DNA from: Oscillospiraceae bacterium
Lineage (GTDB): Bacteria; Bacillota; Clostridia; Oscillospirales; Oscillospiraceae
Length of the DNA stretch: 64,000 nt
NCBI GenBank assembly: GCA_017516065.1
Contig: JAFWDQ010000016.1
Coordinates: 1 to 64,000 of the forward strand
Direction of reading: 5' to 3'
Part shown: piece by piece, positions 25 to 46,679 of the stretch
How the letters are laid out: each line of letters begins with the position of its first letter
Numbering within the stretch: the stretch's first letter is position 1
Notes under the pieces: model-generated
Database searches by the model: none
Seen by the model: the letters and a program-made list of their open reading frames with translations, nothing else
What the model was told of the DNA's origin: nothing
Translations under genes and position numbers: made by a program

Positions 25-139
<115 letters not shown>

Positions 140-141
140 AC

Positions 142-1596: not shown

Positions 1597-1897
1597 TAAA
1601 AATTGAATCAACTAAACCGTTGAAGAAGAGTGAGTAGAGCGTATCCATCTCCTCACAGCGAGCCGTGGATGGTGGGAGCACGGCAGGGGACATACGGTCG
1701 AATGGACTTCTGAGGGCGAACAGAAAGAAAAGCTCGTCTTTTTGAGTATGTGAGACGGAGTGTGACCCTCCGTGAACAAAGGTCGGCATATTATGATGTA
1801 TGCGCAGAGAGGGCGTACCGAATGTACGTCAAGCCGGGTGGCACCGCAGGATCGATGTGGATCCTGTCCCAGCAGAAATGCAGGGACAGGATTTTTT
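1597..1897 (+). promoter_or_regulatory. T-box riboswitch, tRNA-Trp specific
   Basis: The T-box sequence GGGTGGCACCGCAGG lies at 1836-1850. In the 3' side of Stem I the specifier loop reads GAA-TGG-AC with TGG (Trp) at 1703-1705. The tRNA-end binding bulge TGGC is complementary to GCCA, which fits the G73 discriminator usual for bacterial tRNA-Trp, so two independent positions agree on Trp. An antiterminator stem 1847-1852/1861-1866 competes with the terminator 1861-1870/1882-1891. Uncharged tRNA-Trp should stabilise the antiterminator and switch on the downstream trpB2. Stem I boundaries are approximate. Confidence 0.93.
1861..1897 (+). terminator. T-box regulated terminator
   Basis: ATCCTGTCCC (1861-1870) pairs with GGGACAGGAT (1882-1891), followed by TTTTTT. 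It shares its 5' arm with the T-box antiterminator. Confidence 0.92.
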
Positions 1898-2022: not shown

Positions 2023-3390
2023 ATGGAAAAGATCCCTTATAAGATTTATCTGAATGAGACGGAGATGCCTAAGGCATGGTATAACGTCCGGGCCGACATG
2101 AAGAAGAAGCCCGCTCCGCTGATCCATCCCGGCACCCACCAGCCCATGACGGCGGCGGACCTGGCTCCCGTTTTCTGCGAGGAGCTGATCGCCCAGGAGC
2201 TGGACAACACGACCCCCTACATTGAGATCCCCGAGGAGATCCGGGAGTTCTACAAGATGTACCGCCCTTCGCCCCTGGTCAGAGCTTACTGTCTGGAGGA
2301 AAAGCTGCAGACTCCGGCGAAGATCTACTACAAGTTCGAGGGCAACAACACCAGCGGCTCCCACAAGCTCAACTCCTCCATCGCCCAGGCCTATTACGCC
2401 AAGAAGCAGGGCCTGAAGGGCGTCACCACGGTGACCGGCGCCGGCCAGTGGGGCACCGCGCTGTCCATGGCCTGCTCCTATTTCGGCCTGGACTGCAAGG
2501 TCTACATGGTCAAGGTCTCCTACGAGCAGAAGCCCTTCCGCCGCGAGGTCATGCGCACCTACGGCGCGTCCGTAACGCCCTCTCCTTCCATGGAGACGGA
2601 GATCGGCCGGAAGATCCTGGCCGCGCATCCCGGCACCACCGGCAGCCTGGGCTGCGCCATCTCGGAGGCGGTGGAAGTCGCCACCACCAACGAGGGCTAC
2701 CGCTACGTGCTGGGCAGCGTTCTCAATCAGGTGCTGCTGCACCAGTCCGTGATAGGTCTGGAGGCAAAGGCGGCCCTGGACAAGTACGGCGTCAAGCCCG
2801 ATATGATCATCGGCTGCGCCGGCGGCGGCTCCAATCTGGGCGGCCTCATCGCCCCCTTCATGGGCGAGAAGCTCCGGGGCGAGGCGGATTACCGGATCAT
2901 CGCCGTGGAGCCGGCCTCCTGCCCCAGCTTCACCCGGGGCAAGTACGCCTATGACTTCTGCGATACCGGCATGGTCTGCCCCCTGGCCAAGATGTATACC
3001 CTGGGCTGTGACTTCATCCCCGCGCCGAACCACGCCGGCGGCCTGCGCTATCATGGCATGAGCCCGGTGCTCTCGGAGCTGTACGACGGCGGCTTCATGG
3101 AGGCCGTGTCCGTGCCCCAGACGAAGGTCTTTGAGGCCGCGGAGCAGTTCGCCAGAGTGGAGGGCATCCTGCCCGCGCCGGAGAGCGCCCATGCCATCCG
3201 GGTGGCCATCGACGAGGCCCTCAAGTGCAAGGAGACCGGCGAGGAGAAGACCATCCTGTTCGGTCTCACCGGCACCGGCTACTTCGATCTGGTGGCCTAT
3301 GAGCAGTTCCACAACGGCACCATGGAGGATTACATTCCCACCGACGAGGATTTGAAGGCCAGCCTGGCCAAGCTGCCCCCGGTGGATTGA
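2023..3390 (+). CDS. trpB2: Tryptophan synthase beta-like enzyme TrpB2
   Basis: 455 aa, longer than the roughly 400 aa TrpB1 and matching the TrpB2 (TIGR01415-type) subfamily, which makes Trp from indole and serine. The PLP-binding lysine is K115 in SGSHKLNSS, and the phosphate-binding loop appears as GCAGGGSN. No trpA or other trp gene is in the window. TrpB2 lacks the TrpA-contact features of TrpB1, so it probably salvages free indole. It stands alone behind a Trp T-box, which fits induction when charged tRNA-Trp is low. Start ATG 2023 follows AAAGGAAGG. Confidence 0.93.
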   Translation: MEKIPYKIYLNETEMPKAWYNVRADMKKKPAPLIHPGTHQPMTAADLAPVFCEELIAQELDNTTPYIEIPEEIREFYKMYRPSPLVRAYCLEEKLQTPAKIYYKFEGNNTSGSHKLNSSIAQAYYAKKQGLKGVTTVTGAGQWGTALSMACSYFGLDCKVYMVKVSYEQKPFRREVMRTYGASVTPSPSMETEIGRKILAAHPGTTGSLGCAISEAVEVATTNEGYRYVLGSVLNQVLLHQSVIGLEAKAALDKYGVKPDMIIGCAGGGSNLGGLIAPFMGEKLRGEADYRIIAVEPASCPSFTRGKYAYDFCDTGMVCPLAKMYTLGCDFIPAPNHAGGLRYHGMSPVLSELYDGGFMEAVSVPQTKVFEAAEQFARVEGILPAPESAHAIRVAIDEALKCKETGEEKTILFGLTGTGYFDLVAYEQFHNGTMEDYIPTDEDLKASLAKLPPVD

Positions 3391-3409
3391 TCGGGAAGAG
3401 AGAATGACC

Positions 3410-3471
3410 GCCGGCAGAGAGCGAACGCTCTCTGCCGGCCCGCAGGAACGGTATGGGTTCGGTTGTTTTTT
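3410..3471 (+). terminator. Hairpin downstream of trpB2, probable terminator
   Basis: CCGGCAGAGAGCG (3411-3423) and CGCTCTCTGCCGG (3426-3438) form a 13-bp perfect stem. The T-run (about 3466-3471) begins some 27 nt after the stem rather than at its foot, so its efficiency as an intrinsic terminator is uncertain. Confidence 0.5.
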
Positions 3472-3492
3472 CACCACCAGCGATTTTGGGGA

Positions 3493-3521
3493 TTGACAGA
3501 GCCGCAGAGGAATGATATCAT
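3493..3521 (+). promoter_or_regulatory. Sigma-A promoter of the aro/phe/tyr operon
   Basis: TTGACA (3493-3498), exactly 17 nt, TATCAT (3516-3521). It lies about 40 bp upstream of the leader-peptide start codon, giving a leader transcript of about 250 nt before pheA. Confidence 0.88.
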
Positions 3522-3563
3522 AATAAAAATCGCAGGTCGAAACCCGACAGAAAGGAGTCCGCT

Positions 3564-3683
3564 ATGAGAGAGCATGCACCCGTTTCCGTGGCTTTTGAGC
3601 AGGATTCCTATTATTACGCCTACGTTCGCTTTTTTGCGGGCTTTGATTTTTATGCCCTCAATACCGAATATTCCCGAACGTAA
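3564..3683 (+). CDS. Phe/Tyr-rich leader peptide of the aro operon (39 aa)
   Basis: ATG 3564 follows a good ribosome binding site (AAAGGAG, 3551-3557). The 39-residue product holds 6 Tyr and 5 Phe. The core YYYAYVRFFAGFDFY (residues 16-30) has 9 aromatic residues in 15, closely resembling in concept the enterobacterial PheL/PheM leaders. It has no recognisable domain. It lies between the operon promoter and a terminator-like hairpin upstream of pheA. The inferred role is to report Tyr-tRNA and Phe-tRNA charging: slow translation at codons 16-30 would alter folding of the downstream RNA. It stops at TAA 3681-3683, inside segment 2 of the attenuator. Confidence 0.85.
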   Translation: MREHAPVSVAFEQDSYYYAYVRFFAGFDFYALNTEYSRT

Positions 3684-3746
3684 GCAGCGATCTTTCATAA
3701 GTACTGAAAGCGGTCCTGTTTCGTACGGGGCCGCTTCTTTTCTTTC
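3621..3746 (+). promoter_or_regulatory. Transcription attenuator (segments 1-4) before pheA
   Basis: Three mutually exclusive pairings are visible. 1:2 is TACGTTCG (3621-3628, Tyr20 codon and after) with CGAACGTA (3675-3682), 8 bp perfect. 2:3 is 3673-3683 with 3719-3729, 9 pairs with two mismatches. 3:4 is AAGCGGTCC (3708-3716) with GGGCCGCTT (3728-3736), followed by the T-rich tract TCTTTTCTTT (3736-3745). A further hairpin, 3701-3709/3719-3726, also excludes the 3:4 stem. A ribosome stalled at the Tyr/Phe codons would break 1:2 and favour 2:3 (read-through), whereas one reaching the stop codon covers segment 2 and frees 3:4 (termination). Confidence 0.8.
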
Positions 3747-3777
3747 CGGTAAAAACTGACTGCATGGGGTGAGGACG

Positions 3778-4887
3778 ATGGACAAGCTGAAGCAAGCGCG
3801 GGAGATCATCGACGAGGCGGACCGCGGCATAGCGGCGATGTTCTGCAAGCGCATGGAGGCCGCCCGGATGATTGCCGAATATAAAAAGGAGCGGGGCCTG
3901 CCGATCTACGACGGGGACCGGGAGCGGGCGGTGATCGAAAAAAACGCCGCCTGTGTGCCGGACCCGGAGATCCGGGGCTACTATATCAGCCTGCTGCAGA
4001 GTATGATGGGTCTCTCCAGGCAGTACCAGAGCCGCCTGATGGAGGGACTCCATGTGGCCTACAGCGGCGTGGAAGGCGCCTTCGCGGACATCGCGGCCCG
4101 CCGGATCTTTCCCACCGCCCGGCACACCGGCTTTGAGGACTTCCAGGCGGCCTACCGGGCTGTGGAGGACGGGGTCTGCGACTGCGCGGTGCTCCCCATC
4201 GAGAACAGCTACGCAGGCGTCGTGGGCCAGGTCATGGACCTGATGTTCCACGGGCCGCTCCACGTCAACGGGATCTACACCCTGCCGGTGACCCAGAATC
4301 TGCTGGGCCTTGAGGGCGCCTCGATCCGTGAGATCCGCCGGGTGATCAGCCATCCCCAGGCCCTGGGCCAGTGCGCGGCCTATCTGAAGAAGCACGGCTT
4401 TGAGACGGCCAGCGCCGTCAACACCGCTGTGGCCGCCCGCCAGGTGGCGGAGGCCGGGGACCCCGCCGTGGCCGCCATAGCCAGCGCGGAGACGGCGGAG
4501 CTCTACGGGCTGGAGATTCTGGACCACGACATCAACGAGAGCGCCACCAACTCCACCCGGTTTGCGGTGTTCTCCCGGGTCGAGAGTCCTGCGGGGGAGA
4601 AGAAGGACGACAAATTCCTTCTGCTGTTCACCGTCAACGACGTGGCCGGCGCTCTGGCTAAGGCCATCAACGTCATCAGCGACTGGGGCTTCAATATGAA
4701 GGTCCTCCTCAGCCGCCCGGTGCAGGACAAGGCCTGGCAGTACTACTTCTACGTGGAGACGGAGGGCGACGCGACCTCTCCCGAGGGCAGGAGGATGCTG
4801 GCCCTGCTCTCGGAGCAGTGCGAGACGCTGAAGATCGCCGGCCACTATGCCCGGGAGATCACGCTGAAAGGCGGGGATGACGCATGA
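3778..4887 (+). CDS. pheA: Bifunctional chorismate mutase/prephenate dehydratase (P-protein)
   Basis: 369 aa. Residues 1-85 are an AroQ-type all-helical chorismate mutase (R25, K37, D45, R48-E49 region). Residues about 92-275 are prephenate dehydratase, with PIENS (140-144) and NSTRFAVFSR near its end. The C-terminus is an ACT domain with the GALA motif and an LLSRP motif (family consensus ESRP), normally the Phe-binding allosteric site. The protein converts chorismate to phenylpyruvate. First structural gene of the operon, directly after the attenuator. ATG 3778 is preferred over the in-frame GTG at 3769, which lies in the Shine-Dalgarno-like GGGGTGAGG. Ends with an ATGA overlap with aroB. 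Confidence 0.95.
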   Translation: MDKLKQAREIIDEADRGIAAMFCKRMEAARMIAEYKKERGLPIYDGDRERAVIEKNAACVPDPEIRGYYISLLQSMMGLSRQYQSRLMEGLHVAYSGVEGAFADIAARRIFPTARHTGFEDFQAAYRAVEDGVCDCAVLPIENSYAGVVGQVMDLMFHGPLHVNGIYTLPVTQNLLGLEGASIREIRRVISHPQALGQCAAYLKKHGFETASAVNTAVAARQVAEAGDPAVAAIASAETAELYGLEILDHDINESATNSTRFAVFSRVESPAGEKKDDKFLLLFTVNDVAGALAKAINVISDWGFNMKVLLSRPVQDKAWQYYFYVETEGDATSPEGRRMLALLSEQCETLKIAGHYAREITLKGGDDA

Positions 4888-5903
4888 TCCTGCCAGTGGA
4901 CCTGAAGACCAACGCCTATCAGATCATTCTGGAGCGGGGCTGTCTGCACAGAGCGGCGGATCACCTCGATCTTGACCGCCGGGTGCTGATCGTCACCGAC
5001 GACGGCGTGCCGGAGCAGTACGCCGCAGCCGCGGCGGAGCAGTGTGCGCAGCCGGACATCCTCCGCATCCCCCAGGGTGAGGCAAGCAAGAATTTTGAGC
5101 AGCTTCAAGGCATCCTCGCCCGGATGCTGGAGCTGGGCTTTACCAGAGGGGACTGCGTCGTCGCCGTGGGCGGCGGCGTGGTGGGCGATCTTGCGGGCTT
5201 TGCCGCCTCCGTCTATATGCGGGGCGTCGATTTTTACAACATTCCCACCACGGTGCTGTCCATGGTGGATTCCTCCGTGGGCGGCAAGACCGCCATCGAC
5301 CTGAACGGCATCAAGAACGTGGTGGGCTCCTTCTACCAGCCGAAAAAGGTGCTCGTCGATGCGGACACTCTTGCCACCCTGCCGTCCCGGCAGATCTCCA
5401 ACGGTCTGGCGGAGGCGGTAAAGATGGCCCTGACCTCAGATCGGACGCTGTTCGAGCTGTTTGAGACCGGAGATCCTCTGGCGGAGATCGATACCGTCAT
5501 CGAGCGGTCTCTGCGCATCAAGAGCGACGTGGTGGTGCAGGACGAAAGGGAGCGGAATCTGCGGAAGATCCTGAATTTCGGCCACACCATCGGCCACGGT
5601 ATTGAGAGCCTCGCCGACGGACTGTACCACGGCGAGTGCGTGGCCCTGGGTATGATCCCCATGTGCGCCCCCGCCGTCCGGCAGCGGCTGATCCCCGTGC
5701 TGGAGAAGCTGGCTCTGCCCACGTCGTATCCTCTGGACGAGGAGGCGGTCTATCAGGCCCTTCTCCACGACAAAAAGACCCAGGGGACAAAGATCACCGT
5801 CATACGGGTGGAGCAGGTGGGCAGCTTCCGTATGGAATCCGCGGCGCCGGAAAGCCTGAAGCGGGCTCTGACGCTGATCTCGAAAGGAGCGGAGAGAGCA
5901 TGA
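4884..5903 (+). CDS. aroB: 3-dehydroquinate synthase
   Basis: 339 aa, normal length. NAD-binding GGGVVGDLAGFAASVYMRG, the conserved GGKTAIDLNGIKN segment, the metal-ligand glutamate in GLAEAVKMAL and the histidines of NFGHTIGHGIE are all present. It converts DAHP to 3-dehydroquinate, step 2 of the shikimate pathway. It overlaps pheA by 4 bp (ATGA) and aroC by 4 bp. Confidence 0.96.
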   Translation: MILPVDLKTNAYQIILERGCLHRAADHLDLDRRVLIVTDDGVPEQYAAAAAEQCAQPDILRIPQGEASKNFEQLQGILARMLELGFTRGDCVVAVGGGVVGDLAGFAASVYMRGVDFYNIPTTVLSMVDSSVGGKTAIDLNGIKNVVGSFYQPKKVLVDADTLATLPSRQISNGLAEAVKMALTSDRTLFELFETGDPLAEIDTVIERSLRIKSDVVVQDERERNLRKILNFGHTIGHGIESLADGLYHGECVALGMIPMCAPAVRQRLIPVLEKLALPTSYPLDEEAVYQALLHDKKTQGTKITVIRVEQVGSFRMESAAPESLKRALTLISKGAERA

Positions 5904-7000
5904 AAAACACCTTCGGACAGAACGTATCCGTAACCCTGTTCGGCGAGAGCCACGGCGCCGGGATCGGCGCTGTGCTGGACGGTCTGGCCCCGGGGATCCC
6001 CGTGGATGAGGCCTTCATCGCCGATCAGCTCTCCCTGCGCCGCCCCTCCGGCAAGACGGGGACCGCCCGCCGGGAGCAGGACCGGTTTGAGATCCTCAGC
6101 GGCGTATTTGAGGGCAGGACCACCGGCACGCCCCTGTGCATTACGATCCCCAACGAGAACGTCAGCAGCAAGGACTACGCCGCCACCCGGCGCCTTGCCC
6201 GTCCGGGCCATGCCGACTATACCGCCAACTGCAAGTACCACGGCTTTGAGGACTATCGCGGCGGCGGCCATTTCAGCGGCCGGATCACCGCCGCTCTTGT
6301 GGCTGCCGGGGCCGTTGCCATTACGGCGCTGCGGAACAAGGGCATCGTCATCGGCACCCACGTCCGGCGCTGTGCAGGGGTCCCGGACCGGGACTTTGAA
6401 GACCTGGCGGCGGATATCGAAAAACTCAACGCCATGACCTTCGCCGTGCTGGACGACGCCGCGGCGGCTGAGATGAAGGCAAAGATCGAGGCGGCGGGCC
6501 AGGCGGGGGACAGCGTCGGCGGCGTGCTGGAGACGGCTGTCATCGGGGTGCCGGCAGGGGTCGGCGAGCCCTGGTTCGACACCGTAGAGGGCGTGCTGGC
6601 CCACGGGCTGTTCAGCATCCCCGCCGTCAAGGGCGTCCAGTTCGGCGCGGCCTTCGATATGGCGGACGCTCTGGGCAGTCAGTACAACGACCCCTTTGCC
6701 GTGGAGGCGGGGCGGATCGTCACAAAAACGAATCACAACGGCGGCGTCAACGGCGGCATCACGAACGGTATGCCCATCGTGTTCCGCTGCATGGTGAAGC
6801 CGACGCCCTCCATCTTCAAGGAGCAGGAGACGGTGGACTTCTTCAGCAGGGAGGACGCCCGGCTGCAGATCCGGGGCCGTCACGATCCCGCCATCATCCA
6901 CAGAGCCCGGGTGGTGGTGGACAGCGTTACCGCTCTGACCCTCTGCGACCTGCTGGCGGGCCGCTACGGCACGGACTATCTGGGAGGGGCCGCCACATGA
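5900..7000 (+). CDS. aroC: Chorismate synthase
   Basis: 366 aa starting MKNTFGQNVSVTLFGESHG. The FMN/EPSP-binding signatures GESHGAGIG, RPGHADYT, GGGHFSGR and the C-terminal RGRHDPAI are intact. It catalyses the last common step, EPSP to chorismate, using reduced FMN. The open frame continues far upstream through aroB in another frame, but ATG 5900 with ribosome binding site AAAGGAGCGGAGAG and the conserved N-terminus fix the start. Overlaps its neighbours by 4 bp on each side. Confidence 0.96.
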   Translation: MKNTFGQNVSVTLFGESHGAGIGAVLDGLAPGIPVDEAFIADQLSLRRPSGKTGTARREQDRFEILSGVFEGRTTGTPLCITIPNENVSSKDYAATRRLARPGHADYTANCKYHGFEDYRGGGHFSGRITAALVAAGAVAITALRNKGIVIGTHVRRCAGVPDRDFEDLAADIEKLNAMTFAVLDDAAAAEMKAKIEAAGQAGDSVGGVLETAVIGVPAGVGEPWFDTVEGVLAHGLFSIPAVKGVQFGAAFDMADALGSQYNDPFAVEAGRIVTKTNHNGGVNGGITNGMPIVFRCMVKPTPSIFKEQETVDFFSREDARLQIRGRHDPAIIHRARVVVDSVTALTLCDLLAGRYGTDYLGGAAT

Positions 7001-8247
7001 CCTACGGATGTATCGCCCGGCGCCTGGGCCACAGCTTTTCCAGGGTCATACACGAGAAGATCGGCGACTATGACTACGTCCTGCGGGAGGTCCCCGAGGC
7101 GGAGCTGGACTCCTTTCTCACAGCCCGGGACTTTCGGGGCATCAACGTGACCATTCCCTATAAGCAGGCGGTGATCCCCTGGCTCGACGGCATTGACGAC
7201 ACCGCCCGGGCCATCGGCGCGGTGAACACCGTGGTCAACCGGGAGGGGAAGCTCTACGGCTATAACACGGATTTCGGCGGCATGACAGCGCAGATTAAAA
7301 AGATGCGGCTCCCCATCCCGGGGAAAAAGGTCGCCATTCTGGGCACCGGCGGCACCAGCCGGACAGCCCGGGCGGTGGTGCAGGCCCTGGGCGCCGGGGA
7401 GATCGTCACCGTCAGCCGCAGCGGGAGAGAGGGAGCGCTGACCTATTCAGACCTCTGTGCCCTCCACGCCGACACGGAGATCCTCGTCAACACCACTCCC
7501 TGCGGGATGTTCCCGGACACCGACGAGATGCCGGTGGACCCGGCGCGGTTCCCGCAGCTTCTGGGCGTCTTTGACGCCGTCTTCAATCCTCTGGCCCCGA
7601 AGCTGGTGACGGCTGCCCGGGAGCTGGGTATCCCAGCCGCCGGCGGGCTGTATATGCTGGTGGCTCAGGCGGTGCTGGCGGCGGAGCACTTCACCGGGAA
7701 GACGTATCCCGACGGCCTCATCGACAGCATCTACCGGGAAGTGCGCCGGGAGAAGGAGAATATCGTTCTCATCGGCATGCCCGGCAGCGGCAAGACCACC
7801 GTGGGAAATGTGCTCGCGGAAAAACTGGGCCGTGAGATCGTGGATCTGGATGCCTGGATCGTGCAGCAGACGGGCCGTGAGATCACGGACATCTTCGCCC
7901 GGGAGGGCGAGAGCGGGTTCCGCCGTCTGGAGCGGGAGGCCGTCCGGACCTTTGCCGACCGTACGGGCCTCGTGCTGACCCCCGGCGGCGGCTGTATCCT
8001 TGACCCGGACAACGTCCGGGTCCTGAAGCGGAACGGCAGACTGTTCTGGCTGGACCGGGCCCCCGAGCGGCTCATTCCCACAGACGACCGGCCTCTGGCC
8101 GACTCCGTGGAGAAGATGCGCCGCCTGTACGAGACGCGGCTGCCCCTCTATGAGGCCGCGGCGGACGTCCGCGTTCCCGGCGATGGCACCGTCGACGAGA
8201 CGGCGCGGCTGGTGACAGAGATACTGGAAGGAGAGGTGCAGCTGTGA
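6997..8247 (+). CDS. Fused shikimate dehydrogenase-shikimate kinase (AroE-AroK)
   Basis: 416 aa. Residues 1-250 are AroE: substrate-binding serines in LGHSFSRVIH, catalytic Lys in NVTIPYK (51-56), Asp in YNTD (89-92) and NADP-binding GTGGTSR (116-122). Residues about 254-416 are AroK: Walker A GMPGSGKTT (260-268), the shikimate-binding aspartate in IVDLDAW, ESGFRRLE, and GGGCIL. One polypeptide thus catalyses steps 4 and 5 of the pathway. No second copy of either gene is in the window. Such fusions are known in some Clostridia. Both active sites look complete. Confidence 0.95.
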   Translation: MTYGCIARRLGHSFSRVIHEKIGDYDYVLREVPEAELDSFLTARDFRGINVTIPYKQAVIPWLDGIDDTARAIGAVNTVVNREGKLYGYNTDFGGMTAQIKKMRLPIPGKKVAILGTGGTSRTARAVVQALGAGEIVTVSRSGREGALTYSDLCALHADTEILVNTTPCGMFPDTDEMPVDPARFPQLLGVFDAVFNPLAPKLVTAARELGIPAAGGLYMLVAQAVLAAEHFTGKTYPDGLIDSIYREVRREKENIVLIGMPGSGKTTVGNVLAEKLGREIVDLDAWIVQQTGREITDIFAREGESGFRRLEREAVRTFADRTGLVLTPGGGCILDPDNVRVLKRNGRLFWLDRAPERLIPTDDRPLADSVEKMRRLYETRLPLYEAAADVRVPGDGTVDETARLVTEILEGEVQL

Positions 8248-8687
8248 AACTCCTCATCATCAACGGACCCAATCTCAATATGCTCGGCATACGGGAGCCG
8301 GAGCACTACGGCAAGACGACCTATCCGGCCCTCTGCCGCCGCCTGATGGACTATGCCTCGGAGCGGGGCGTGGAGATCGAGCTGTACCAGTCCAACCACG
8401 AGGGGGATCTGGTGGACAGGATCCAGGCGGCCTACGGCACCGCCGACGGCATCGTCATCAACCCCGGCGCCTACACCCACACCAGCGTGGCCCTGCTGGA
8501 CGCCGTGAAGGCCGTGTCCATCCCCACGGTGGAGGTGCATATCTCCAAGCTGGAGGAGCGGGAGGCGTTCCGGCAGATCAGCTATATCCGCGCCGCCTGC
8601 GTGGCCACCATCACCGGCCACGGCGTCGACGGCTATCTGGAGGCCATGGACATCCTCATTGACGGAGGGACGCGGCATGCAGATTGA
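8244..8687 (+). CDS. aroQ: Type II 3-dehydroquinate dehydratase
   Basis: 147 aa, typical of the dodecameric type II enzyme. Motifs NGPNLNMLG, REPEHYG (catalytic Tyr), QSNHEG, INPGAYTHTS and EVHIS (catalytic His) are all in place. It dehydrates 3-dehydroquinate to 3-dehydroshikimate (step 3). The ATGA overlap with aroE/K and overlap with aroA indicate translational coupling. Confidence 0.96.
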   Translation: MKLLIINGPNLNMLGIREPEHYGKTTYPALCRRLMDYASERGVEIELYQSNHEGDLVDRIQAAYGTADGIVINPGAYTHTSVALLDAVKAVSIPTVEVHISKLEEREAFRQISYIRAACVATITGHGVDGYLEAMDILIDGGTRHAD

Positions 8688-9894
8688 GATCCGGCCCTCC
8701 AAAGCCCGGGGCGTCATGGCGGCGCCGCCGTCGAAGAGCGCCGCCCACCGGCTGCTGCTCTGTGCCGGACTGGCGCCGGGGGAGAGCGTCGTCCGCCGTG
8801 TGGCGGACTCCCAGGATATGCTGGCCACCATGGACTGCCTGAAGGCTTTGGGGGCGGGCGTTACCCGGGCAGGGGATGACGTGCACATCACCGGCGTCGA
8901 CCCGGCCCGTACAGCCCCGGCGGTGCTGCCCTGCCGGGAGTGCGGCACGACCCTGCGCTTTTTCGTCCCCATCGCTCTGCTCTCCGGACAGGAGATCACC
9001 CTTACCGGCAGCGAAAAGCTCATGAGCCGCCCCATGTCGGTGTACGAGAAGCTCTGTGCGGACCGCGGCTTTCGCTACGAGCCGTCCCGGGACTCCCTCA
9101 CCGTCTGCGGCAGGCTCACCCCCGGGGAATATACGGTCCCCGGCAACATCAGCAGTCAGTTCATCAGCGGTCTGGCCTTTGCACTGACCCAGCTGGAGGG
9201 GGACAGCGTCATCCGCATCCTCCCGCCGGTGGAGAGCAGGCCGTATATCGATATGACCCTGGACGCCTTCTCCGCTTTCGGCGTCACCGCCGCCTTTTCC
9301 GACGGCGATACCATCCGCATCCCCGGCCTGCAGCGGTTCCGGCCCTCGGACGTGACGGTGGAGGGCGATTACTCCAACGCGGCGTTCTTCGACGCCCTGA
9401 CCCTTCTGGGCGGCGACGTGACCGTCACCGGCCTGAAGGAGGACAGCCTTCAGGGGGACCGGGTGTACCGCAGATACTTTGAGAGCATGAAAAACGGGAC
9501 GCCCACGGTGGATCTCTCCGACTGTCCGGATCTGGGCCCCGTCTGCATGGCGTCGGCGGCGGCTCTCCACGGGGCGGTCTTTACCGGTACCCGCCGTCTG
9601 CGGATCAAGGAGAGCGACCGCTGCGCCGCCATGGCCGAGGAGCTGGCCAAATTCGGCATAGAGACGGAGGTCACGGAGGATACCATGACCGTGAAGGCCT
9701 CCGGCCTCCGGGCGCCGGACATGGTGATCTCGGGACACAACGACCACCGCATCGTCATGGCCATGGCCGTTCTTGCCACCCTCACCGGCGGCAGGATAAA
9801 CGGCGCCCAGGCGGTGAGTAAAAGTCTGCCGGACTTCTTTGACCGGCTGAAAACACTTGGAATTGAGGTGACAGAGTATGGCATGGGTCTGTGA
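8677..9894 (+). CDS. aroA: 3-phosphoshikimate 1-carboxyvinyltransferase (EPSP synthase)
   Basis: 405 aa from ATG 8677, which has ribosome binding site GGAGGG at 8663-8668. An in-frame TTG at 8659 is less likely. The start lies 11 bp inside aroQ. Motifs: PPSKSAAHR (phosphoenolpyruvate/shikimate-phosphate site), CGTTLRF in the position of the enterobacterial NAGTAMRP loop, SSQFISGL, RIKESDR and the C-terminal NDHRIVMA. Joins shikimate-3-phosphate and PEP (step 6). The active-site loop differs from the classical glyphosate-sensitive type, but no resistance class is assigned here. Confidence 0.95.
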   Translation: MQIEIRPSKARGVMAAPPSKSAAHRLLLCAGLAPGESVVRRVADSQDMLATMDCLKALGAGVTRAGDDVHITGVDPARTAPAVLPCRECGTTLRFFVPIALLSGQEITLTGSEKLMSRPMSVYEKLCADRGFRYEPSRDSLTVCGRLTPGEYTVPGNISSQFISGLAFALTQLEGDSVIRILPPVESRPYIDMTLDAFSAFGVTAAFSDGDTIRIPGLQRFRPSDVTVEGDYSNAAFFDALTLLGGDVTVTGLKEDSLQGDRVYRRYFESMKNGTPTVDLSDCPDLGPVCMASAAALHGAVFTGTRRLRIKESDRCAAMAEELAKFGIETEVTEDTMTVKASGLRAPDMVISGHNDHRIVMAMAVLATLTGGRINGAQAVSKSLPDFFDRLKTLGIEVTEYGMGL

Positions 9895-10738
9895 AAACAA
9901 CATCCTGATCGTGGGTCTGGGTCTCATGGGCGGCAGCTACGCCAGAGCCCTGAAGCGGCTGGGCTACCACGTCAGCGCCATCGACAGCAGGGAGAGCGCC
10001 ATCGAGTACGCGCTGGAGCAGGGGATCATCCATCAGGGCTCCACGCAGGTGGACGAGGCCATGGTGAGCGCGGCGGACACGGTGATCTTCGCCCTGTATC
10101 CCGGGGTGTTCCGGGAGTGGATTGAGACCTGGCAGCACCTGTTCAAGCCCGGCGCCATGCTCACGGACGTGACGGGCGTGAAGGCCTGCATCGTGTACGA
10201 TATCCAGGCGATGCTCCGAAGCGACGTGGAGTATATCGCCGCCCATCCCATGGCGGGCCGTGAGGTCTGCGGCGTGGAGAACAGCGACGACCGTATGTTC
10301 CGGGATGCCAACTACATCGTGGTAGCCACGGAGAAGAACACCCCGGAGGCCATCGACTGGTGCAAGAGCCTGGGACAGGTACTGGGCTTTTCCCGGATCT
10401 CGGTGCTGTCGCCGGAGGAGCACGACCGGATGATCGGCTTCGTCTCCCAGCTGACCCACTGCATCGCCATCGCGCTGATGACCTGCAGCGACAACCGGCA
10501 TCTGGTGGACTACACCGGCGACTCCTTCCGGGACCTGACCCGGATCGCCCGGATCAACGACGTCATGTGGAGCGAGCTGTTCCTGCTCAACCGTGAGCCT
10601 CTGGTGGAGGAGATCGACGTCTTTATGGGCGAGCTGGAGGAGATCAGAGAACTGCTGGTCCGGGGCGACCGGGAGGGCCTGCAGGAGAAGATGCGTCTGT
10701 CCACCACGCGGCGGGCGTACTTCGACAAGCCGGTTTAA
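9878..10738 (+). CDS. tyrA: Prephenate dehydrogenase
   Basis: 286 aa. N-terminal Rossmann motif GLGLMGGS (residues 13-20), then the prephenate dehydrogenase signature HPMAGRE, followed by the helical dimerisation domain. No C-terminal ACT domain, so it is probably not Tyr-inhibited through ACT. It makes 4-hydroxyphenylpyruvate, the Tyr precursor, opposite pheA at the branch point. Overlaps aroA by 17 bp. Confidence 0.93.
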   Translation: MAWVCENNILIVGLGLMGGSYARALKRLGYHVSAIDSRESAIEYALEQGIIHQGSTQVDEAMVSAADTVIFALYPGVFREWIETWQHLFKPGAMLTDVTGVKACIVYDIQAMLRSDVEYIAAHPMAGREVCGVENSDDRMFRDANYIVVATEKNTPEAIDWCKSLGQVLGFSRISVLSPEEHDRMIGFVSQLTHCIAIALMTCSDNRHLVDYTGDSFRDLTRIARINDVMWSELFLLNREPLVEEIDVFMGELEEIRELLVRGDREGLQEKMRLSTTRRAYFDKPV

Positions 10739-10762: not shown

Positions 10763-11791
10763 ATGAATATGATCTTTGAGAAAAAACTGGCGATCCCCAT
10801 GGAGGTCAAGGAGATGTATCCCATCTCCAGCCATCTGTCGGAGATCGTGGAGAAGCGGGCGGTGGAGCTCAAGGAGATCTTTGACGGCCGCTCGGACAAA
10901 TTCCTGCTGATCATCGGCCCGTGCTCTGCGGACAATGAGGAGAGCGTCATCGACTACATCACCCGCCTGCGGGGCGTGCAGGAGAAGGTCAGCGACAAGA
11001 TCTTCATCGTGCCCCGGGTCTATACGAACAAGCCCAGGACCACCGGCGCCGGCTACAAGGGGATGCTCCACCAGCCGGACCCCACGGAAAAGCCGGACCT
11101 GTTCAAGGGGATCGTGGCCATCCGCAAGCTGCTGATGCGCGTTCTGGAGGAGACGGAGTTCTCCTGTGCCGACGAGATGCTGTATCCGGAAAACTATAAG
11201 TATCTGGACGACCTTCTGGCCTATTCCGCCGTAGGCGCCCGGTCGGTGGAGGACCAGCAGCACCGGCTCACCGCCAGCGGGATCGAGACTCCGGTGGGGA
11301 TGAAGAACCCCACCAGCGGCGATATCGACGTGATGATGAACTCCATCATGGCTGCCCAGAACAAGCACACCTTCATCTACCGGGGCTGGCAGGCCCATTC
11401 CCAGGGCAATCCCTACGCCCACGCCATCCTCCGGGGCTATGTGAACAAGCACGGCCAGTCTCTTCCCAATTACCACTATGAGGACCTGATCCATCTGTAT
11501 GAGACGTATCAGGAGCGGGCGCTGGCGAATCCGGCGGCCATCGTGGACACGAACCACGCCAACTCCGGCAAGCAGTATCTCGAGCAGATCCGCATCGCCA
11601 AGGAGGTCCTCCACAGCCGCCGGCACAGTCCGGAGATCGCCGGTCTGGTCAAGGGCCTGATGATCGAGAGCTATATCGAGGACGGCGCCCAGAAAATCGG
11701 CGAGGGGATCTACGGCAAGTCCATCACGGATCCCTGCCTGGGCTGGGAGAAGAGTGAACGGCTGATCTACGATATCGCGGACAGTCTGTAA
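10763..11791 (+). CDS. aroF: 3-deoxy-7-phosphoheptulonate (DAHP) synthase, class I
   Basis: 342 aa, class I AroF/G/H type: IIGPCSADNEE, the PEP-binding RVYTNKPRTTGAGYKG, HQPDP and the metal-site NHANS region. It condenses PEP and erythrose-4-phosphate, the pathway entry step. It is the last gene of the operon, 24 bp after tyrA, with its own ribosome binding site, and is followed by a strong terminator. Which amino acid inhibits it cannot be read from sequence. Confidence 0.95.
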   Translation: MNMIFEKKLAIPMEVKEMYPISSHLSEIVEKRAVELKEIFDGRSDKFLLIIGPCSADNEESVIDYITRLRGVQEKVSDKIFIVPRVYTNKPRTTGAGYKGMLHQPDPTEKPDLFKGIVAIRKLLMRVLEETEFSCADEMLYPENYKYLDDLLAYSAVGARSVEDQQHRLTASGIETPVGMKNPTSGDIDVMMNSIMAAQNKHTFIYRGWQAHSQGNPYAHAILRGYVNKHGQSLPNYHYEDLIHLYETYQERALANPAAIVDTNHANSGKQYLEQIRIAKEVLHSRRHSPEIAGLVKGLMIESYIEDGAQKIGEGIYGKSITDPCLGWEKSERLIYDIADSL

Positions 11792-46603: not shown

Positions 46604-46679
46604 TGGTGGACCTAAAGGGATTCGAACCCTCGACCTCTCGGATGCGAACCGAACGCTCTCCCAACTGAGCTATAGGCCC
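46604..46679 (-). tRNA. tRNA-Ala, anticodon CGC
   Basis: 76 nt with encoded CCA. Acceptor stem GGGCCTA/TAGGTCC has the G3-U70 pair that defines alanine identity, and the discriminator is A. The anticodon loop is TTCGCAT (anticodon CGC, codon GCG). D arm GCTC..GAGC and T arm GAGGG-TTCGAAT-CCCTT are normal. Confidence 0.97.

What the first reader, a model, noticed from the sequence alone, without database searches (positions are those of the whole stretch)
3493..3777. Phe/Tyr leader-peptide attenuator before a whole-pathway aro operon in a Firmicute
Seen directly: a TTGACA-17-TATCAT promoter, a 39-aa ORF with its own ribosome binding site and YYYAYVRFFAGFDFY core, an 8-bp perfect 1:2 stem that includes the Tyr20 codon (3621-3628/3675-3682), an imperfect 2:3 stem (3673-3683/3719-3729) and a terminator-like 3:4 stem (3708-3716/3728-3736) before a T-rich tract. 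The stop codon lies in segment 2, as in enterobacterial pheL/trpL. Known: Firmicutes usually regulate these genes with T-boxes, TRAP or other means, and ribosome-stalling attenuation is mainly described in Proteobacteria and Actinobacteria. Inferred: one stall region reads both Tyr-tRNA and Phe-tRNA and controls all seven shikimate steps plus the Phe and Tyr branch enzymes. The T-tract is interrupted by C, so terminator strength is uncertain.
Basis: partly seen in the sequence, partly recalled or inferred. Interest (0 to 1): 0.88.

Follow-up and report, generated by a model that had tools for sequence, protein, structure and literature searches.

The report
Phe/Tyr leader-peptide switch for aro operon
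In a bacterium probably belonging to the Clostridia, a tiny gene packed with phenylalanine and tyrosine codons, followed by a predicted transcription-stop hairpin, stands before the genes for making those two amino acids; ribosomes stalling on it are predicted to switch the whole pathway on when either one runs short, and similar leaders stand before the same genes in dozens of related genomes.

Summary
Window 3493-3746 holds a promoter, RBS, a 39-codon ORF with 11 Phe/Tyr codons and a 12-bp terminator hairpin before pheA-aroB-aroC-aroEK-aroQ-aroA-tyrA-DAHP synthase. Comparative work makes it a conserved family. The curated set has 48 loci (window included): Phe/Tyr-rich leader plus terminator before pheA, 46 with both residues, 16 families among the 43 with a family handle. 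In 15 further loci the leader precedes a different first gene that runs into pheA. A strict detector hits 40 of 85 loci where pheA looks first; in a 56-locus subset 26, against 0.1 in shuffles. Folding predicts antitermination with ribosomes on Phe/Tyr codons and termination at the stop codon. Best reading: ribosome-mediated attenuation sensing Phe and Tyr. That mechanism is known in Firmicutes for branched-chain operons and predicted for his operons, and two candidate Phe/Tyr uORFs on shikimate genes were reported in 2019. So it is a new, widespread member of a known kind; no expression data were available.

The parts
3493..3521 (+). promoter TTGACA-17-TATCAT
   Evidence: 11 of 12 consensus matches; promoter-like pair upstream of the leader in 44 of 48 curated loci, 20 base shuffles mean 10.35, maximum 18
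3551..3557 (+). ribosome binding site AAAGGAG of the leader ORF
   Evidence: read in sequence
3564..3683 (+). leader peptide ORF, 39 aa, Phe/Tyr-rich; stop codon 3681-3683
   Evidence: conservation
3609..3653 (+). regulatory Tyr/Phe codons 16-30 (YYYAYVRFFAGFDFY)
   Evidence: antiterminator predicted for any A site from codon 16 to 35
3624..3641 (+). small hairpin GUUCGC-UUUUUU-GCGGGC whose loop is the Phe-Phe codons; possible RNA polymerase pause hairpin (role inferred)
   Evidence: stronger versions in L016, L018
3621..3682 (+). 1:2 stem 3621-3628/3675-3682
   Evidence: 8 of 8 pairs; at most 9 of 500 shuffles in 5 of 8 class A loci
3672..3730 (+). antiterminator 3672-3697/3705-3730, spanning the stop codon and capturing the terminator 5' arm
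   Evidence: MFE in the stalled-ribosome state; pair statistics on 8 loci
3708..3746 (+). intrinsic terminator 3708-3719/3725-3736 plus CTTTTCTTTC tract
   Evidence: 99% of cells paired and 6 pairs with double changes in 8 loci
3778..4887 (+). pheA, chorismate mutase-prephenate dehydratase (ATG 3778; GTG 3769 also in frame)
4884..5903 (+). aroB
5924..7000 (+). aroC (start not certain; open frame from 5636)
6997..8247 (+). aroE-aroK fusion
8244..8687 (+). aroQ, type II dehydroquinate dehydratase
8659..9894 (+). aroA, EPSP synthase (start not certain)
9878..10738 (+). tyrA, prephenate dehydrogenase
10763..11791 (+). DAHP synthase, AroFGH type

Best explanation
[quoted passage not shown] Predicted steps: when charged Phe- or Tyr-tRNA is scarce, the ribosome stalls at codons 16-30, leaves 3672-3697 free, and this strand pairs with 3705-3730, capturing the terminator's 5' arm, so RNA polymerase reads on into the operon. 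When both are plentiful, the ribosome reaches the stop codon (3681-3683), covers the antiterminator strand, the terminator 3708-3736 forms and transcription ends. The 1:2 stem 3621-3628/3675-3682 would hold the outer antiterminator strand when the leader is not translated. Shown: sequence parts, their recurrence, covariation, and state-dependent folding in silico. Inferred: transcription start, stalling, termination efficiency, dual sensing in the cell.
For: Recurrence: strict detector 40 of 85 first-gene-like loci, 1 of 61 internal-like (L016, whose 'upstream gene' looks like a spurious open frame), 0 of 85 on the reverse strand; Phe+Tyr ranks first of 190 residue pairs, and the best pair without F or Y reaches 5. 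A hairpin plus T-run follows each of the 48 curated leaders, 46 of 48 with both F and Y. In 15 of 33 scanned loci where another frame runs into pheA, leader and terminator lie further upstream, and in 15 of these 15 one gene starts 10-52 nt after the terminator and ends 2-24 nt before pheA. Class A terminator: 99% of cells paired, 6 pairs with double changes, 0 of 500 shuffles reach the covariation score. Class A antiterminator: 65% of cells vs 59.3% shuffled, covariation 0.236 vs 0.163, 0 of 500. Class C antiterminator helix, formed by the codons after the F/Y run: 85.7% of cells, covariation 0.165 vs 0.107, 1 of 500. Window: energy gained by sequestering the terminator arm is -11.4 kcal/mol when stalled at Tyr20, -3.2 at the stop codon, -5.5 in shuffles, and between -10.1 and -11.8 for A sites 16-35. 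Over 38 loci mean z = -1.69, and the gain is -5 or better in 36 of 38 when stalled and 13 of 38 at the stop codon.
Against: No RNA or protein data. The T-tract is interrupted. At equilibrium the window's switch is small (terminator cost 1.4 kcal/mol stalled, 0.4 at stop); 12 of 48 loci reach a 2 kcal/mol difference, none in the opposite direction. In the window ribosomes at codons 6-8 give gains of -9.3 to -10.9, and untranslated RNA -7.2, so the fold is not unique to F/Y stalls. 8 of 38 loci, L006, L009 and L036 of class A among them, have z of 0 or above. On the first five class A rows the antiterminator did not exceed shuffles. In class C the number of pairs with double changes does not exceed shuffles (211 of 500). 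The closest PheA relative, L003 (about 72% identity), has no such leader in 1506 nt upstream. L032 keeps a terminator but no leader was found. Of 85 first-gene-like loci, 38 are outside the curated set. Related sequences inflate shuffle-based scores.
Confidence: 0.88

Rival explanations
1. The leader responds to Tyr (or Phe) alone; the other residue is there only because UUU/UUC and UAU/UAC codons suit the RNA helices.
For: F and Y codons are U-rich and in the class A 1:2 stem some of them pair with the A-rich strand around the stop codon; L006 and L173 have Phe only.
Against: 46 of 48 leaders have both, median 5 Phe and 4 Tyr; by eye F and Y swap at aligned positions while density stays high; the operon makes both.
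Confidence: 0.2
2. A constitutive 5' terminator with an irrelevant small ORF, or an sORF making a functional peptide, without attenuation.
For: Terminator conservation is the strongest signal; a leader peptide can act in trans (PMC7298713, start of abstract in the search listing).
Against: Peptide sequence differs between classes while F/Y density stays; stop-to-terminator distance has a median of 27 nt (range 4-83); antiterminators covary.
Confidence: 0.07
3. A tRNA-binding T-box or a metabolite riboswitch controls the operon.
For: T-box matches occur in this genome, at pheST, trpE and the neighbouring trpB-like gene among others.
Against: At E up to 5 the only Rfam hit in 3400-3900 is a snoRNA model on the other strand, E 0.85. 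In 20 relatives at gathering score the only hit is a group II intron end in L006; in 20 relatives at E 0.1 the only hit is P11 in L053, E 0.093. Half of the leader transcript is the ORF.
Confidence: 0.03

Closest known systems
Enterobacterial pheL/trpL-type ribosome-mediated attenuators (recalled)
   Same: Regulatory-codon leader ORF, stop codon in segment 2, terminator alternative to an antiterminator, biosynthetic operon downstream.
   Different: Carries both Phe and Tyr codons; heads the whole chorismate pathway plus both branches; different phylum; no Rfam match.
S. aureus ilv-leu attenuator and Listeria Rli60 (PMC5794164, PMC5864092; passages)
   Same: Ribosome-mediated attenuation of an amino-acid operon in Firmicutes, several related residues in one leader.
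   Different: Branched-chain residues, Bacilli; in S. aureus the proposed antiterminator leaves the terminator stem intact and sequesters the poly-U.
Predicted His attenuators of B. cereus group, Peptostreptococcaceae and Lutispora, Erysipelotrichales (PMC9413887; passages)
   Same: Leader peptide with a residue run, terminator and antiterminator in Firmicutes including Clostridia.
   Different: Histidine, his operon.
Two candidate uORFs with F and Y linked to shikimate genes (PMC6429828; passages, outline, section 13)
   Same: Same residues and same pathway; the five genomes studied include Clostridium novyi.
   Different: On these uORFs I saw only the legend of Fig. 6; which genome, gene or structure was not seen, and supplements could not be read.
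uORFC-13-1 upstream of aroF in Acholeplasma (PMC8632094; passages)
   Same: Predicted Phe-codon uORF plus terminator before a shikimate gene.
   Different: Upstream of aroF only, at least one Phe codon, Acholeplasma.

Membership tests
ribosome-mediated transcription attenuator | short leader ORF with SD and runs of cognate codons | tested here: met
ribosome-mediated transcription attenuator | intrinsic terminator between leader and first gene | tested here: met
   predicted; covariation; U-tract interrupted in the window
ribosome-mediated transcription attenuator | antiterminator exclusive with terminator, available when the ribosome stalls and masked at the stop codon | tested here: met
   in silico only; weak at equilibrium for the window
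ribosome-mediated transcription attenuator | downstream genes make the sensed amino acids | tested here: met
   gene order begins pheA-aroB-aroC in 25 of 37 curated loci longer than 2.5 kb
ribosome-mediated transcription attenuator | starvation-dependent read-through | not testable with these tools
   needs RNA data
T-box | Rfam RF00230 covariance match | tested here: not met
   no T-box hit in 3400-3900 at E up to 5
RNA families of Rfam 15 | gathering-score match in the region | tested here: not met
   the Actinobacterial pheA motif of PMC2864571 bears no Rfam accession in the passage seen, so it was not tested

The most novel reading that the evidence does not exclude
A two-input (Phe OR Tyr) ribosome-read attenuator is a pervasive control of the entire aromatic pathway across Clostridia, stays at the head of the operon whether the first gene is pheA, DAHP synthase, an aminotransferase or another gene, and coexists with T-boxes at pheST and trpE in the same genome; in one subclass the codons directly after the Phe/Tyr run are themselves the antiterminator strand, giving a minimal two-helix switch without a separate protector stem.
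Probability: 0.5. Interest if true: 0.65.

Novelty: new member of a known kind. Interest (0 to 1): 0.52.

Why it matters
It would put the whole shikimate pathway of many uncultured anaerobes under one predicted two-amino-acid switch. It shows a genome with T-boxes at pheST and trpE that would use a translating ribosome where two end products must be read at once. It also supplies 63 loci (48 curated plus 15 with another first gene, some near-identical) for defining an RNA family and for annotating operon starts in metagenomes.

Tried and rejected
T-box or known riboswitch: rejected. The first classification of relatives read some loci on the wrong strand because genome-search loci are not oriented (partly mended in 21, fully in 27). 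After three more class A leaders were found the full antiterminator exceeded shuffles. The 1:2 stem was then tested with a free register, because MAFFT puts some rows out of step; 3 of 8 rows (L006, L036, L162) are not individually unusual. The 2:3 stem alone was not retested on eight rows. The equilibrium cost of the terminator is only a modest test. Leader peptides at hisG and acetolactate synthase of the same genome: my residue thresholds flagged none of that kind; the candidate before one acetolactate synthase gene was seen by eye in the printed sequence and then checked.

What was left out of counts: loci L019-L031 (PheA at 39% identity or less) from then on; L124 and duplicates; weak small ORFs without SD or with poor support (for example L087, L110, L118, L121, L126, L168, L178) from the curated 48. 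Not all matches were read: upstream DNA was looked at for 30 of 266 matches (the best 30, 17 of them used), 90 of 114, 30 of 32, and all.

Literature searches for prior description: (open-access PMC only, top rows seen). I saw no Phe/Tyr attenuator of a whole aro operon in Clostridia in them, but PMC6429828 mentions two candidate F/Y uORFs on shikimate genes.

Full report
What is there. Window 3493-3746 reads in order: promoter-like pair TTGACA-17-TATCAT, RBS AAAGGAG, leader ORF 3564-3683 with 11 Phe/Tyr codons of 39, stop codon 3681-3683, and a 12-bp hairpin 3708-3736 followed by CTTTTCTTTC. Downstream lie pheA, aroB, aroC, an aroE-aroK fusion, aroQ, aroA, tyrA and an AroFGH-type DAHP synthase, that is, all seven shikimate steps plus the first enzymes of both branches. 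A DNA search of its genome finds the element once. No Rfam family matches it.

Is it more than chance? I searched for relatives of PheA in 300 genomes of the same family (266 with a match at E <= 0.001), 394 of the order (114 at E <= 1e-60), 63 and 21 of two further families (32 and 4), 7 and 3 of two genera (5 and 1) and 391 of the class (29 at E <= 1e-70), plus six named contigs. Upstream DNA was read for the best 30 of the 266, 90 of the 114, 30 of the 32 and all of the rest. After dropping distant PheA loci (L019-L031), duplicates and one stretch without upstream DNA, 146 upstream regions remained. A strict rule was applied: ATG with SD-like sequence, 10-60 aa, at least 5 F/Y in 10 residues, ending at least 50 nt before pheA. 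It hits 40 of 85 regions where pheA looks like the first gene and 1 of 61 where another frame runs into it; 0 of 85 on the reverse strand. Of 190 residue pairs FY is first with 40, the next reach 22 (AF, FR), and the best pair without F or Y reaches 5. On the first 56 first-gene-like regions the count was 26, against a mean of 0.1 and a maximum of 1 in 20 dinucleotide shuffles.

The curated set. With a few leaders that miss the strict rule, 48 loci including the window have a leader followed by a hairpin and T-run. 46 of 48 have both Phe and Tyr, with medians of 5 and 4. The leader stop lies a median 27 nt before the terminator, and the terminator a median 28 nt before pheA. Five are on named contigs. 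The other 43 come from eight families of the window's order and eight families of other orders of the class, by the tool's unnamed family handles. Weak rows: L075 was assigned a poor hairpin (-4.5 kcal/mol), although its printed sequence shows a stronger one further on; L037 and L070 have gaps of 83 and 73 nt. Some rows are near duplicates (L033/L034, L048/L049, L086/L091).

The leader marks the head of the gene cluster. Of 33 loci where another frame runs into pheA and at least 900 nt upstream were held, 15 (not counting L016) have a Phe/Tyr-dense leader followed by a terminator further upstream; the reverse strand gives 1 of 33, without a terminator. In each of the 15 a single ORF starts 10-52 nt after the terminator and ends 2-24 nt before pheA. 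Checked examples are a pyridoxal-phosphate aminotransferase (L012, L057, L060, L061, L062), a DAHP synthase (L064, L185), a GNAT acetyltransferase (L004, L162, L163) and a DUF554 protein (L051). L051 and L052 are near-identical. In L004, L162 and L163 the leader is of the window's own type (ARFLGGFFF, VRYFGGYYF, ARFFGGF).

How it would switch. I folded the RNA left free by a ribosome (from 13 nt past the first base of the A-site codon) and asked what energy is gained by tying up the terminator's 5' arm. For the window the gain is -11.4 kcal/mol with the ribosome at Tyr20 and -3.2 at the stop codon; 60 shuffles average -5.5 (z -2.26). The gain lies between -10.1 and -11.8 for every A site from codon 16 to codon 35 and falls away from codon 36 to the stop. 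So any Tyr or Phe codon of the core would do; but codons 6-8 also give -9.3 to -10.9 and untranslated RNA -7.2. The structure is 3672-3697 paired with 3705-3730, 23 bp. It remains the minimum-energy fold in the stalled state even with the full terminator sequence present. Over 38 loci the mean z is -1.69, 18 of 38 are below -1.64 and 8 of 38 are at or above 0. With the whole terminator transcribed, the equilibrium cost of forming it differs by at least 2 kcal/mol in the expected direction in 12 of 48 loci and in the opposite direction in none; for the window it is 1.4-1.5 against 0.4. The switch in the window therefore leans on the antiterminator forming first, which is inferred.

Covariation. 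On eight window-like (class A) loci the terminator keeps 99% of cells paired with six pairs changed on both sides; 0 of 500 shuffles reach its covariation score. The antiterminator keeps 65% of cells against 59.3% shuffled, covariation 0.236 against 0.163, 0 of 500; with five rows it had not exceeded shuffles. The 1:2 stem has at least 6 of 8 pairs in all eight rows and is individually unusual (at most 9 of 500 shuffles) in five. In class C (14 loci) the codons right after the Phe/Tyr run (such as AAG GAC TGC) pair with the foot of the terminator: 85.7% of cells, covariation 0.165 against 0.107, 1 of 500; the number of pairs with double changes (2) is not unusual. One example is L085, where a G-C pair is A-U. 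Shuffle counts ignore relatedness, so they are not probabilities.

Differences between classes. In class A a 1:2 stem could hold the outer antiterminator strand when the leader is not translated. In three class C loci (L089, L136, L137) the untranslated RNA is predicted to prefer the antiterminator (cost 5.3-6.2 kcal/mol), so loss of translation might open rather than close the operon there. This is a prediction only.

Context. The same genome has eight T-box matches, two over the gathering score. Genes beside them: valS, alaS, thrS, pheS-pheT, trpE, the trpB-like gene at window 2023, a sodium/solute symporter-like gene, and one unidentified. Specifier codons were not read, but Phe and Trp are probably sensed there by T-boxes. 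My inference is that a leader peptide suits this operon because it serves two end products.

Known work. Leader-peptide attenuation in Firmicutes was proposed for hisZ/hisS-type genes (PMC2965389, passages). It is supported by experiments for ilv-leu of S. aureus and Listeria (PMC5794164, PMC5864092, passages; overview PMC6123439, passages). It is predicted for his operons (PMC9413887, passages). A Phe uORF before Acholeplasma aroF (PMC8632094, passages) and two F/Y uORFs on shikimate genes (PMC6429828) are the nearest. In the B. cereus group the tyrosine operon has a T-box (PMC2494555, passage). No RNA structures were found for Phe or Tyr operons in Actinobacteria in a 2005 survey (PMC1262725, passages). 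A 2024 survey of 50 genomes has no occurrence of phenylalanine, tyrosine or pheA in its main text (PMC11109978, term search). Enterobacterial pheL and trpL are recalled.

Verdict. The feature is real, conserved and well explained by ribosome-mediated attenuation reading Phe and Tyr. The mechanism class is known; breadth, dual codon content and the mapped alternative helices are the new part.

Noticed in passing
window 1611-1874 (+): T-box-like RNA (RF00230, 85.6 bits, below the gathering score of 93) just upstream of the trpB-like gene at 2023-3390; probably a Trp T-box.
   Followed up: partly
window 3410-3439: Strong inverted repeat GCCGGCAGAGAGCG/CGCTCTCTGCCGGC after the trpB-like gene with no T-run directly behind it.
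   Followed up: no
L193 minus strand 3464-3336: Candidate branched-chain leader peptide (MRYPATTVKAGNPVVIIVRLDH...) with SD and a -25.7 kcal/mol hairpin plus short T-rich stretch before an acetolactate synthase gene in the same genome, suggesting a second attenuator.
   Followed up: partly
L032 about 5030-5170: Relative that keeps a promoter-like pair and a window-type terminator before pheA but shows no leader ORF.
   Followed up: partly
L016, L018, L015, L189 leaders: Hairpins such as the 12-bp one in L018 whose loop holds Phe/Tyr codons, at the recurrent V-R-[FY] motif; possible polymerase pause signal.
   Followed up: partly
L089, L136, L137: Class C leaders whose untranslated RNA is predicted to prefer the antiterminator, unlike the classic scheme.
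   Followed up: partly
window 16609 (-): Only other Phe-dense small ORF with an SD-like sequence in the window (46 aa); likely chance.
   Followed up: no
window 25-140 and 46607-46679 (-): 5S rRNA and a tRNA gene.
   Followed up: no
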